Source: Nitrospirota bacterium (GTDB taxonomy: Bacteria > Nitrospirota > Thermodesulfovibrionia > Thermodesulfovibrionales > JdFR-88). From it: a DNA stretch of 36,659 nucleotides. The notes beneath the pieces were generated by a model. That model was not told where the DNA came from and searched no databases. It saw only the letters and a list, made by a program, of their open reading frames with translations. The stretch covers positions 1-36,659 of the forward strand of contig JAJYIR010000024.1 in assembly GCA_021789935.1 (NCBI GenBank), given 5' to 3'. Positions within the stretch are counted from its first letter, which is position 1. The number at the start of each line of letters is the position of its first letter. Below, piece by piece: positions 1 to 31,738 of this stretch. Position numbers and translations under genes: made by a program.

Positions 1-43
1 GGGCATACTCTGCTATATTAGACCACTCTGCGCCGACGAGGAG

Positions 44-191
44 TACTGGACGTAGCAAGTCGCATGGGTTGTATTAATTTTTTAGTCGCCACATCATAAG
101 TATTATCTATCCTGTCTTTCGAAAAAAATCTTTATTGGCGCGAGCTGTATGAAGAAATCAGTTAAAAGCTAAGTCACAGGACCCCGGCTTT
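44..191. repeat. Long direct repeat flanking mazEF, copy 1 (148 bp)
   Basis: This block recurs at 1141-1293 in the same orientation. Aligned by eye, the copies differ by one 5-bp insertion (AATAA, copy 2 only) and about three substitutions, so identity is near 98 percent. Copy 1 starts at TACTGGACGTAGCAAG and ends at GACCCCGGCTTT, inside what is the loop of a hairpin in copy 2. Together the copies enclose about 950 bp that hold mazEF and nothing else. I see no open reading frame or known IS end in the repeat. Confidence 0.93.
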
Positions 192-241
192 TAACAAAGA
201 GAAACACTTCCACATTTTAAGAAAAAAAGCAAAGTCGCTGG

Positions 242-263
242 ATTCCGTGTCGGGGCACGGAAT
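242..263. repeat. Perfect 8-bp stem-loop, dispersed-repeat type
   Basis: ATTCCGTG and CACGGAAT form a perfect 8-bp stem around a 6-nt loop. The surroundings (AAGTCGCTGG before, GACGGC after) match the surroundings of a second hairpin at 1284-1301 with a different stem (AAGTCACAGGA before, TGACTGC after). This suggests a family of dispersed hairpins with constant edges and variable stems. No T-run follows, so it is not a classical terminator. It lies downstream of mazF, which reads towards it. Confidence 0.7.
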
Positions 264-316
264 GACGGCAAAAGACAAATGCGGACGCAGCAAACATCGA
301 CATGCTCCCAAGAAGT

Positions 317-649
317 TCAGGTCAGCAAGGGCCTGAATTTGGCTAGGATTGTAGAAATTGAATTCGCTCCCACACGGTCAACGATCTTTATTTTTCTCGC
401 CTGCCAGTCGACGGAGCGAATCTGATCGGCGAGGGCGGCCCCGGAGGTCTTTTTCGCGCCCTCAAGTTGTACTTCGAAAGGATAGCCCTTGATCTTTGTC
501 GTTATGGGGCACACAAGACAGAGACCTGAAGCTTTGTTATAGAATTCCGGAGATAGAACAACCGCCGGTCTGAAACCTGACTGCTCATGCCCTAACGTCG
601 GGTCAAGGCTCAAGAGGATTACATCTCCGCGGTCGGGAATCGTCCTCAT
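317..649 (-). CDS. mazF: MazF/PemK-family endoribonuclease toxin
   Basis: 110 residues, the normal size for a MazF toxin, a ribosome-independent mRNA interferase that cuts RNA at short sequences and is neutralised by MazE. The N-terminal strand RGDVILLSLDPTLGHEQSG leads into RPAVVLSP, then CPITTKIKGYPFEV, the family core. By alignment with the E. coli protein, E22, R27 and T50 correspond to catalytic-centre residues, so the toxin looks intact. The ATG overlaps the TAA of the upstream antitoxin gene (TAATG), the usual translational coupling. The module sits between two long direct repeats and is AT-richer than the chromosome around it, a sign of acquisition. A frameshifted relic of the same gene lies at 31.6 kb. 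Family assignment is firm; the RNA target cannot be read from sequence. Confidence 0.95.
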   Translation of the reverse strand: MRTIPDRGDVILLSLDPTLGHEQSGFRPAVVLSPEFYNKASGLCLVCPITTKIKGYPFEVQLEGAKKTSGAALADQIRSVDWQARKIKIVDRVGANSISTILAKFRPLLT

Positions 650-891
650 TAAATGATCTCTCTACCAACGGGACGCCCAAAATCAATTTCAGCGTGCCGA
701 TTCCGTGGAGTAATCCCTTTAACAAGTTCCCTTAAAGAATATTCCTTAGTTTCTACTGGCTTGATTATGACCCCTCCATCGGCTTCCTCAATTTCCACAG
801 CTGAGTCCACATCGATTCCGGCCTTCTTAGCCAAATCTCTGGGTATCCTCACGCCAATGCTGTTTCCCCATTTGGCCGCTTTCGTAATCAC
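649..891 (-). CDS. mazE: MazE/AbrB-type antitoxin
   Basis: 80 residues. The N-terminal half (ITKAAKWGNSIGVRIPRDLA) is a SpoVT/AbrB swapped-hairpin DNA-binding domain typical of MazE. The acidic C-terminal half (EIEEADGGVIIKPV, then a short tail) is the part that usually wraps and inhibits MazF. The frame is open further upstream, but I place the start at the GTG at 891 because AAAGAGG lies about 7 nt before it, the protein then begins right at the AbrB fold, and a promoter and operator sit just upstream. An alternative GTG lies two codons earlier. The stop overlaps the mazF ATG by one base. The pair is expected to be autoregulated through the operator at 936-954. Confidence 0.9.
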   Translation of the reverse strand: MITKAAKWGNSIGVRIPRDLAKKAGIDVDSAVEIEEADGGVIIKPVETKEYSLRELVKGITPRNRHAEIDFGRPVGREII

Positions 892-934
892 ATCCACACC
901 TCTCTTTATCGAATTTTTTTGTATAACTGTTTTT

Positions 935-963
935 AGTATATCCCATGAATATACAAAAGGCAA
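935..963 (-). promoter_or_regulatory. Sigma-70-type promoter of mazEF
   Basis: On the minus strand, TTGCCT (963-958) is separated by 17 bp from TATACT (940-935), a 4/6 and 5/6 match to the sigma-70 consensus. This puts the transcript start near 928, about 37 nt before the mazE GTG. No other gene lies downstream on this strand before the direct repeat, so it serves mazEF alone. Confidence 0.7.
936..954. promoter_or_regulatory. Palindromic operator over the mazEF -10 box
   Basis: GTATAT (936-941) and ATATAC (949-954) form a perfect inverted repeat with a 7-bp spacer, overlapping the -10 box and part of the promoter spacer. Another GTATA occurs at 921-925. MazE-type AbrB dimers bind such AT-rich palindromes and repress with MazF as co-repressor. 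That the MazE here binds this site is inferred from position and symmetry. Confidence 0.65.
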
Positions 964-1140
964 GTCTATTGGTGCATAGGATTTGCAAGGGAAAAGCAAT
1001 TCCGTTGAGGAAAAACGATTCTCGCAGATCCGAGTTCATTGTGCTCTGTACGACTGGAAAATGTTAGTCATTTGGTCCGGTAGCGGCGCGGGTTAGGGGC
1101 CGAAACACGCATCAAATCTTATCAACGGCTGAGTTTCACT

Positions 1141-1293
1141 TACTGGACGTAGCAAGAATAATCGCATGGGTTGTATTAATTTTTTAGTCGCCACATCATA
1201 AGTATTATCTATCCGGTCTTTCAAAAAAAATCCTTATTGGCGCGAGCTGTATGAAGAAATCAGTTAAAAGCTAAGTCACAGGACCCCGGCTTT
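1141..1293. repeat. Long direct repeat flanking mazEF, copy 2 (153 bp)
   Basis: Second copy of the 44-191 block, same orientation, with an extra AATAA after GCAAG and about three substitutions. It lies upstream of mazE and ends in the loop of the hairpin at 1284-1301, so the boundary shared by the two copies falls in a potential cruciform. The stretch 892-1404 holds, in order, the mazE leader and promoter, about 110 bp that also survive beside the mazEF relic at 31.5 kb, this repeat, the hairpin and then the 3' end of sppA; I see no gene in it. Confidence 0.93.
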
Positions 1294-1301
1294 CGCCGGG
1301 G
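1284..1301. repeat. GC-rich hairpin at the end of direct repeat 2
   Basis: CCCCGGC and GCCGGGG pair around TTTC; the flanking GTCAC (1275-1279) and GTGAC (1301-1305) extend the symmetry. It shares edge motifs (AAGTC.C..GGA before, TGAC after) with the hairpin at 242-263. No T-run follows on either strand. It lies just past the 3' end of sppA. Confidence 0.65.
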
Positions 1302-1404
1302 TGACTGCATCAGGGAACTGTACCCACAGCGATCCCAGTAGACCCAAAACCAGAAAGGCCAATCCCCTTTTCCTCTTCCAGGTGCCACACAGAATATGCC
1401 AGCC

Positions 1405-2394
1405 TCAGGGGTTCCACATATACATAAAAGACACTCCCGGTTCCGGCCAGAGAGAGCCGGTATAAATTGAAAAAAGGTCCCTGCCCGCCGCCGCTTCCGC
1501 TGCCAGGCGCGCACTTGAATAAATGGTGGATTTGAAGCTCGAAGGGCGCAAATAAGTCACCACTCGCGCCTTTTTTATCCCGAGGGACTTTTTAAGGCCG
1601 CTTATCGAGTCATCCAGATAGGCCTCCTGGTCTATCAGCTTGTCTTTAAGCGCCTGGTCCGCGGTAAAGATGCGGCCGTCGGCAAGCTGAAGGAGCTGTT
1701 GCCTTGTCAGTTTTGCGTTTTTTTGCCTGTTTTCGTTCACGACATTTATAAACCGGGAGAAGAGGTTGTTTATTATGCCCTGAAGCATCGTCTTTTCCTG
1801 CGGTGTGCTCGGGCGGAAAGGCGACCAGAAGTCTTTTTCCGCTCCGGACTTGTATGTTTCCTCCCGGACCCCCACCTTTGACATGAGCCCCTCGATATCA
1901 AACTTCATCGCTATTACGCCGATGCTGCCCGTAAGCGCCGTCGGGCTTGCGATTATCCTGTCTGCCGCCTGGGCCACGTAATAGCCGCCTGACGCCCCGA
2001 TATCCATTATATATGCATACACCGGGACCTTCTTTTTTTTCTTGAACGCCATTATCTCATGATAGATAACGTCGCTTGCGGTTACTCCCCCGCCCGGGGA
2101 ATTTATCCTGATTATGACGCCCGCGATGTCCTTGTCCGCCTGCGCCTTCACCAGGGCCTCTTTGAAGTAGGCAACGGGGGAGGGCTGGCTCGAGGCCCCG
2201 AGACCCCCTTTCTTTTCGCTGAACGAGATGACTCCGTCAAGGTCCAGAAGCAGGATCTTGGGGCGCCCCCGGCCCTCGATAAGCTTTTCCTTTAGGGGTT
2301 TTTGTTCAGGGGAAAGAGAAATATTGACGCATGAGGCGAGCGAGAACAAAAGCGGAATGAGGAACAGGAAAAAAAGTGAAATCCTTCCCTTCAT
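1405..2394 (-). CDS. sppA: Signal peptide peptidase SppA, lipoprotein-anchored (S49)
   Basis: 329 residues, the size of single-domain bacterial SppA. Residues 1-22 are a lipoprotein signal ending in the lipobox LASC, so Cys22 should be lipidated and the catalytic domain faces the periplasm. The S49 fold is clear: INSPGGG at 98-103, the nucleophile Ser135 in GASGGYY, LTGSIGV at 154-160, and the general base Lys182 in TYKSGAEKD. SppA trims signal-peptide remnants in the membrane. It is monocistronic and divergent from selB. The far C-terminus (after about residue 290) is not conserved in my memory of the family. Family call firm; whether it is the genome's only SppA is unknown. Confidence 0.95.
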   Translation of the reverse strand: MKGRISLFFLFLIPLLFSLASCVNISLSPEQKPLKEKLIEGRGRPKILLLDLDGVISFSEKKGGLGASSQPSPVAYFKEALVKAQADKDIAGVIIRINSPGGGVTASDVIYHEIMAFKKKKKVPVYAYIMDIGASGGYYVAQAADRIIASPTALTGSIGVIAMKFDIEGLMSKVGVREETYKSGAEKDFWSPFRPSTPQEKTMLQGIINNLFSRFINVVNENRQKNAKLTRQQLLQLADGRIFTADQALKDKLIDQEAYLDDSISGLKKSLGIKKARVVTYLRPSSFKSTIYSSARLAAEAAAGRDLFSIYTGSLWPEPGVSFMYMWNP

Positions 2395-31509: not shown

Positions 31510-31738
31510 CGGCCCCTAACCGCGCCGCTACCGAACCAAATGACTAACATTTTCCGGTCGTGCAGCGCACAATGCACTCGGGTCCGCGAGAATCGTTTTT
31601 TCCTCAAGGGCATGGGCAATCAGGTTTCAGGCCGGCGGTTGTTCCATCTCCGGATTTTATAACAAAGCTTCAGGCCTCTGTCTTGTGTGCCCCATAACGG
31701 CAAAGGTCAAGGGCTATCCTTTCGAAGTGCAACTTGAA
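31510..31738 (+). pseudogene. mazF: Decayed mazEF locus: promoter-side block fused to a frameshifted mazF fragment
   Basis: 31510-31606 matches the reverse complement of about 1005-1101, the block upstream of mazE, at roughly 90 percent. 31607-31738 matches the reverse complement of about 461-593, codons 19-62 of mazF (GHEQSGFRPAVVLSP to GYPFEVQLE), at about 90 percent. The roughly 410 bp in between, all of mazE and the mazF start, are missing; the junction falls at AAGGGCATG. A further 1-bp loss (CCGGATTTTATAAC against CCGGAATTCTATAAC) breaks the frame. So this is a dead second copy, in opposite orientation to the intact locus 30 kb away. Confidence 0.9.

What the first reader, a model, noticed from the sequence alone, without database searches (positions are those of the whole stretch)
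44..1293. mazEF module enclosed by two nearly identical ~150-bp direct repeats
The blocks 44-191 and 1141-1293 are about 98 percent identical and in the same orientation, with only mazEF between them. Shared ends fall at a hairpin loop. This is the layout of a unit that can be lost or gained by recombination between the repeats, or of a non-autonomous mobile cassette that duplicated a long target. A toxin-antitoxin pair in such a cassette would also punish its own loss. I know of no named element with this repeat.
Basis: partly seen in the sequence, partly recalled or inferred. Interest (0 to 1): 0.62.

Follow-up and report, generated by a model that had tools for sequence, protein, structure and literature searches.

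The report
mazEF passenger in an ISL3-type transposon
The two 150-bp repeats around a bacterial toxin-antitoxin pair are two copies, one broken and one whole, of the right end of a transposon without its own transposase that carries the pair as cargo: a new example of a known kind of mobile element, not a new kind of cassette.

Summary
In detail: window 44-191 and 1141-1293 are same-strand repeats (98% over 132 ungapped bases; 95% overall, one 5-nt indel) around an intact mazEF.

The repeats do not bound the mobile unit. The CBS-gene/sppA gap, about 100 to 400 nt in relatives, here holds about 2.65 kb running from contig C9:8644 to window 1345. It has ISL3-like terminal inverted repeats and a perfect 8-bp target duplication (AAAACCAG). 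A 2.6-kb island in a same-genus MAG (G002) shares both ends, has other cargo and has an empty site in our genome. ISL3 transposase fragments beside matching ends lie at contig edges in our genome.

The 150-bp block is most of this element's right end, including a decayed GIY-YIG gene tail. Copy 2 continues through a complete hairpin to the terminal repeat; copy 1 is cut at the hairpin loop, where mazEF begins. In G002 the same mazEF unit (98% identical, against 84% for neighbouring genes) has one truncated block elsewhere; another element has a complete block and no mazEF. So the locus looks like a fusion of two related elements.

Verdict: non-autonomous ISL3-type transposon (mobile-insertion-cassette-like) with a toxin-antitoxin passenger; new member of a known kind. 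How the second right end arose is inferred.

The parts
1..51 (+). s1: short interspersed segment ending in TACTGGAC; also at 4 loci in 3 other genomes of the family with unrelated flanks; the first 120 nt of the window are identical to own contig C9:9945-10064
44..191 (+). Copy 1 of the block: right-end segment truncated in its hairpin loop, lacking the terminal inverted repeat
222..299 (+). Hairpin repeat at the edge of the mazEF unit, present at many loci in the family
317..649 (-). mazF toxin gene, 110 aa (MazF/PemK endoribonuclease family)
649..903 (-). mazE antitoxin gene, about 80-84 aa; exact start not fixed (a GTG near 888-903 is likely; the mechanical ORF runs to 999)
935..963 (-). 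Promoter-like site upstream of mazE (TTGCCT-17-TATACT); consensus match only
1098..1149 (+). s2: short segment ending in TACTGGACG, also in G009 without mazEF
1141..1293 (+). Copy 2 of the block: first part of the intact right end
1229..1267 (+). Decayed 3' end of a GIY-YIG endonuclease gene (NPYWRELYEEIS*; compare NPYWRDLYEDIK* in an intact 96-aa GIY-YIG ORF of a small element in G001)
1284..1303 (+). Complete hairpin ACCCCGGCTTTCGCCGGGGT of the right end
1322..1345 (-). Right terminal inverted repeat GGGTCTACTGGGATCGCTGTGGGT, pairing with the left one GGCACTTCTGGCTTTTGTGTGGGT at own contig C9:8644-8667
1346..1353 (+). Right copy of the 8-bp target duplication AAAACCAG (left copy at C9:8636-8643)
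31510..31737 (-). Remnant of a second mazEF unit with an internal deletion (matches window 462-593 and 999-1102 at 90-92%)

Best explanation
The locus is one end of a roughly 2.65-kb non-autonomous transposon of ISL3 type, inserted between a CBS-domain gene and sppA. SHOWN: its left end is on contig C9 (8644) and its right end at window 1345; the ends carry ISL3-like inverted repeats and are flanked by the same 8-bp AAAACCAG; relatives lack the insertion; a related island with the same ends and other cargo sits elsewhere in G002, where our genome is empty; ISL3 transposase C-terminal fragments adjoin matching ends in our genome. The 150-bp block is the inner part of the right end (decayed GIY-YIG tail plus hairpin). 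INFERRED: an ISL3 transposase acting in trans moved the unit; mazEF, which interrupts one copy of the right end at its hairpin loop, was joined to a second, complete right end by recombination between two related elements, either at the shared TACTGGACG motif in one crossover or through the block itself. MazEF then works as an ordinary RNase toxin and antitoxin that would tend to keep the element. The two right-end copies could recombine and drop mazEF.
For: Inverted ends 16/24 identical with a perfect 8-bp direct repeat; of 86 shared 8-mers that could flank ends in the two regions compared, only this pair shows more than 12/24. A consensus of these ends, drawn up partly from them, hits 9 places in the genome and none in the reversed control. 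ISL3 transposase C-terminus (PF01610) directly inside GGCTCTACTGGGTTTCCTGTGGGT at contig edges C24 and C38. CBS gene and sppA adjacent in relatives. G002 island L046:4679-7297 with homologous left end (92%) and right end (88%), other cargo, and the corresponding 94-nt gap in our genome. Smaller end-bounded elements of 278-461 bp in G001, G007, G008 and G010 with 8-bp flanks alike in most positions. The mazEF unit is 97.7% identical to G002 C5 while the sppA-selB region is 84% identical. Copy 1's truncation and mazEF junction match G002 C5; copy 2's complete end matches G002 C4. ISL3 elements with passengers, about 25-bp ends and AT-rich 8-bp duplications are described (PMC5559704; ISPpu12, PMC4133298).
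Against: The element spans two contigs. C9 and the window overlap by 120 identical nt, but C9 then diverges into a RAYT gene, so either a strain variant or a further block copy may lie between them. The terminal repeats are imperfect. No intact ISL3 transposase with these ends is assembled in this genome. The fusion history rests on three loci and few differences; copy 1's private changes could also be plain divergence.
Confidence: 0.8

Rival explanations
1. One reading: mazEF between two 150-bp repeats is itself the mobile or excisable cassette; it moves or is lost by recombination between the repeats.
For: The layout is real; repeats of 132 bp at 98% are long enough for RecA-type recombination; the mazEF unit is shared nearly identically with another species.
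Against: In G002 the mazEF unit has a single block. The single complete block in G002 ends an island with other cargo, not an emptied mazEF site. No locus with mazEF or other cargo between two blocks was found in 60 relatives.
Confidence: 0.12
2. Plain tandem duplication of a block-mazEF segment followed by loss of the second mazEF.
For: Two same-strand copies of the block with mazEF between them.
Against: Copy 1 lacks the second hairpin arm and terminal repeat that copy 2 has, so copy 2 cannot be a duplicate of copy 1; the sequences upstream of the copies (s1 and s2) differ.
Confidence: 0.05
3. Group II introns or their hairpin-plus-TACTGGA target sites drive the shuffling: s1 and s2 are intron target sites, and cassettes are exchanged at TACTGGA/CGTAG.
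For: In G002 C5 the block starts exactly after sequence 88-93% identical to the 3' ends of group II introns (RF00029, RF02003) elsewhere. In G008 the intron's 5' exon appears to end ACTTCTGGA and its 3' exon begins CGTAA, the same junction as s1/s2-block.
Against: No intron at the site in the window; such introns insert themselves and are not known to carry neighbouring genes; only two loci show the motif with an intron.
Confidence: 0.1
4. Assembly artefact: the contig is a chimera joined at repeats.
For: Draft assembly; the window starts at a contig edge in a repeat and shares 120 nt with C9.
Against: The 8-bp duplication and synteny tie C9 and the window together; an independent assembly shows the copy1-mazEF-s2 stretch; the copies differ too much to be merged by long k-mers. 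Only the s2/block2 junction lacks independent support.
Confidence: 0.05

Closest known systems
Mobile insertion cassettes (MICs), such as MIC231 of the Bacillus cereus group, and MITE-type derivatives of insertion sequences
   Same: Passenger genes between insertion-sequence inverted repeats, no transposase inside, presumed mobilisation in trans
   Different: ISL3-type ends instead of IS231 (IS4 family) ends; carries mazEF; has a second, truncated right end inside
ISL3-family transposons with passenger genes (fosB transposon of enterococci, PMC5559704; ISPpu12, PMC4133298)
   Same: End sequences of about 24-25 bp, AT-rich 8-bp target duplication, accessory genes as cargo
   Different: No transposase gene inside this element; different cargo
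Toxin-antitoxin pairs in Tn3-family transposons (PMC7157771; Tn4662a in PMC4133298)
   Same: A toxin-antitoxin pair rides on a transposon
   Different: Other transposon family; here the pair lies near the end of a non-autonomous element
Chromosomal and plasmid mazEF / pemIK modules
   Same: MazF and MazE families met by profile; overlapping gene pair in the usual order
   Different: Only its position inside the element

Membership tests
Non-autonomous ISL3-type element (MIC/MITE-like) | Terminal inverted repeats of ISL3 type | tested here: met
   16/24 between the ends; both resemble the ends that adjoin ISL3 transposase fragments in the same genome
Non-autonomous ISL3-type element (MIC/MITE-like) | 8-bp target-site duplication | tested here: met
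   AAAACCAG at C9:8636-8643 and window 1346-1353; related elements have similar but not always identical 8-bp flanks
Non-autonomous ISL3-type element (MIC/MITE-like) | Empty site in relatives | tested here: met
   CBS gene and sppA adjacent without the insert in G002, G003, G007 and G009; reciprocal empty site for the G002 island in our genome
Non-autonomous ISL3-type element (MIC/MITE-like) | No transposase gene inside, but a source of transposase in the genome | tested here: inconclusive
   None inside the assembled parts; the genome holds only C-terminal ISL3 fragments at contig edges, so an intact source is likely but not assembled
Non-autonomous ISL3-type element (MIC/MITE-like) | Demonstrated transposition | not testable with these tools
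   Needs an experiment
Autonomous ISL3 insertion sequence | Encodes a DDE_Tnp_ISL3 transposase | tested here: not met
   PF01610 search finds no match in C9 or C22
mazEF type II toxin-antitoxin | MazF and MazE family proteins in one overlapping operon | tested here: met
   PF02452 89 bits, PF04014 45 bits; NCBIfam MazF 130 bits against a cut-off of 120; the MazE model is below its cut-off (58.7 against 113)
mazEF type II toxin-antitoxin | Toxin and antitoxin activity | not testable with these tools
   Needs expression in a laboratory E. coli strain
   G002 has mazEF with one block, and a block without mazEF
Integron gene cassette | attC site and integrase | not tested
   The s1/s2 ends do not resemble GTTRRRY attC ends by eye; no integrase search was made

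The most novel reading that the evidence does not exclude
Group II intron target junctions (hairpin, then TACTGGA/CGTAG) act as hubs where ISL3-type element ends and toxin-antitoxin or other cargo are exchanged, so that intron mobility or intron-to-intron recombination helps to build these passenger transposons.
Probability: 0.08. Interest if true: 0.55.

Novelty: new member of a known kind. Interest (0 to 1): 0.3.

Why it matters
It turns an apparent new cassette into a defined element: a transposase-less ISL3-type transposon that carries a mazEF pair and has recently been shared between species of one Nitrospirota lineage. It adds a toxin-antitoxin pair to the cargo of this element type and gives a clear example in which conspicuous direct repeats are duplicated element ends rather than target duplications.

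Tried and rejected
Phage and plasmid collections: no match to 1-1400; viral contigs: none. Rfam: no RNA family in the window. Folding of the block on either strand is not better than shuffles (z about -0.6 to -0.7), so the block was not pursued as a structured RNA. The guess that G002 C5's left edge is a group II intron got no Rfam match on the 323-nt stretch, where the contig cuts the intron short, but homologous loci do match. PADLOC: no defence family in the cargo. s1 and s2 were considered as C-termini of a protein (both can be read ...YWT stop) but other copies do not keep the frame.

Full report
Observation. The repeats are real: 60-191 and 1162-1293 are 98% identical over 132 ungapped bases. 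Extended to 44-191 and 1141-1293 they differ by three substitutions and a 5-nt AATAA present only in copy 2. An intact mazEF pair lies between on the minus strand. The identity ends in the loop of a GC-rich hairpin that is complete only in copy 2. The window is a whole contig (C22) of a 60-contig draft genome (G000), so copy 1 is beside a contig edge.

Where the block occurs. In the own genome it occurs three times: the two copies, plus the first 83 nt at contig C9:9988-10070, just before C9 runs into a REP-associated (RAYT) transposase gene (the RAYT naming is from its N-terminal sequence, read by eye). C9:9945-10064 is identical to window 1-120. In the same genus, G002 (a Nitrospirae MAG, WY3.bin168) has two good copies: one truncated exactly like copy 1 and followed by the same mazEF (contig C5, 97.7% identical over 1.1 kb), and one complete copy without mazEF (contig C4). 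No other genome in the named collection, and no viral contig, holds an exact match to the block pattern.

The real unit. In relatives, sppA (window 1405-2394) lies tail to tail with a CBS-domain gene found on C9 of our genome. The gap is about 100 nt in G002 and 378 nt in G003. In our genome it holds C9:8644 onward plus the window up to 1345, 2,646 nt if C9 and C22 are joined at their overlap. The two outer ends are inverted repeats (GGCACTTCTGGCTTTTGTGTGGGT and GGGTCTACTGGGATCGCTGTGGGT, 16/24) flanked on both sides by AAAACCAG. In a scan of all 86 shared 8-mers between the two regions this pair stands alone. The G002 C4 copy lies at the right end of a 2.6-kb island whose left end is 92% identical to ours. 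That island carries a VRR-NUC-domain ORF and another ORF, and our genome has a 94-nt gap at the same place. Smaller elements with similar ends and similar 8-bp flanks occur in G001, G007, G008 and G010.

Family. In our genome and in G005, ISL3 transposase C-terminal fragments (PF01610) lie directly inside ends reading GGCTCTACTGGGTTTCCTGTGGGT, at contig edges as expected of a multi-copy insertion sequence. Left-type ends (GGCTCTTCAGGGTTCTGTGTGGGT) are at the edges of C3 and C27. Published ISL3-type transposons have about 25-bp ends and AT-rich 8-bp duplications and can carry passengers (PMC5559704; PMC4133298). Our unit therefore works like, and passes the testable criteria for, a non-autonomous ISL3-type element. 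It contains no transposase gene in the assembled parts.

What the block is. A 64-nt stretch of the block matches the end of a GIY-YIG endonuclease gene carried by a 461-bp element in G001 (NPYWRDLYEDIK* against NPYWRELYEEIS* here). The rest is a short unidentified stretch, a hairpin and, beyond the repeated part, the terminal repeat. So it is most of the right end of the element, with a decayed passenger gene in it. Copy 1 lost the second hairpin arm and the terminal repeat where mazEF begins; G002 C5 has the same junction, so it predates the sharing.

How the two copies came together (inferred). Copy 1 plus mazEF plus s2 equals the G002 C5 unit; copy 2 plus terminal repeat equals the G002 C4 right end. 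A single crossover at the TACTGGACG shared by s2 and by the start of the block, or recombination through the block itself, would give the observed order. The TACTGGA/CGTAG junction is also where a group II intron sits in G002 C5, and a related intron in G008 has the same exon junction; its role, if any, is open. The mazEF unit is much more alike between the two species (97.7%) than the neighbouring sppA-selB genes (84%), so it was probably exchanged recently.

Function (inferred). MazEF is probably an ordinary RNase toxin-antitoxin passenger that favours retention of the element. Recombination between the two right-end copies could delete it, but no such product was seen.

Limits. The element spans two contigs; the RAYT branch of C9 may be a strain variant or mark a further copy of the block. 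The intact ISL3 transposase was not assembled. Activity of neither the transposon nor mazEF was tested.

Noticed in passing
window 31510-31737: Remnant of a second mazEF unit on the minus strand with an internal deletion; another partial copy at own contig C21:20758-21045 starts in a hairpin loop.
   Followed up: partly
L010 9945-10202 (own contig C9): C9 shares exactly 120 nt with the start of the window and then enters a RAYT-like gene; possible strain variant or further block copy.
   Followed up: partly
window 1-51 and 1098-1149: Short interspersed segments s1 and s2 with unrelated 5' parts but a common TACTGGACG 3' end, at several loci in related genomes; nature unknown, perhaps group II intron target sites.
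   Followed up: partly
L109 1414-1874: 461-bp ISL3-ended element in G001 holding a 96-aa GIY-YIG ORF between inverted hairpin repeats; may be a small mobile nuclease unit of its own.
   Followed up: partly
L046 4679-7297: G002 island of the same type with a VRR-NUC-domain ORF (389 aa) and an unknown ORF as cargo.
   Followed up: partly
L140, L144, L146: Group II introns with very similar 3' ends; in L140 (G008) inserted at a CTGGA/CGTAA junction.
   Followed up: partly
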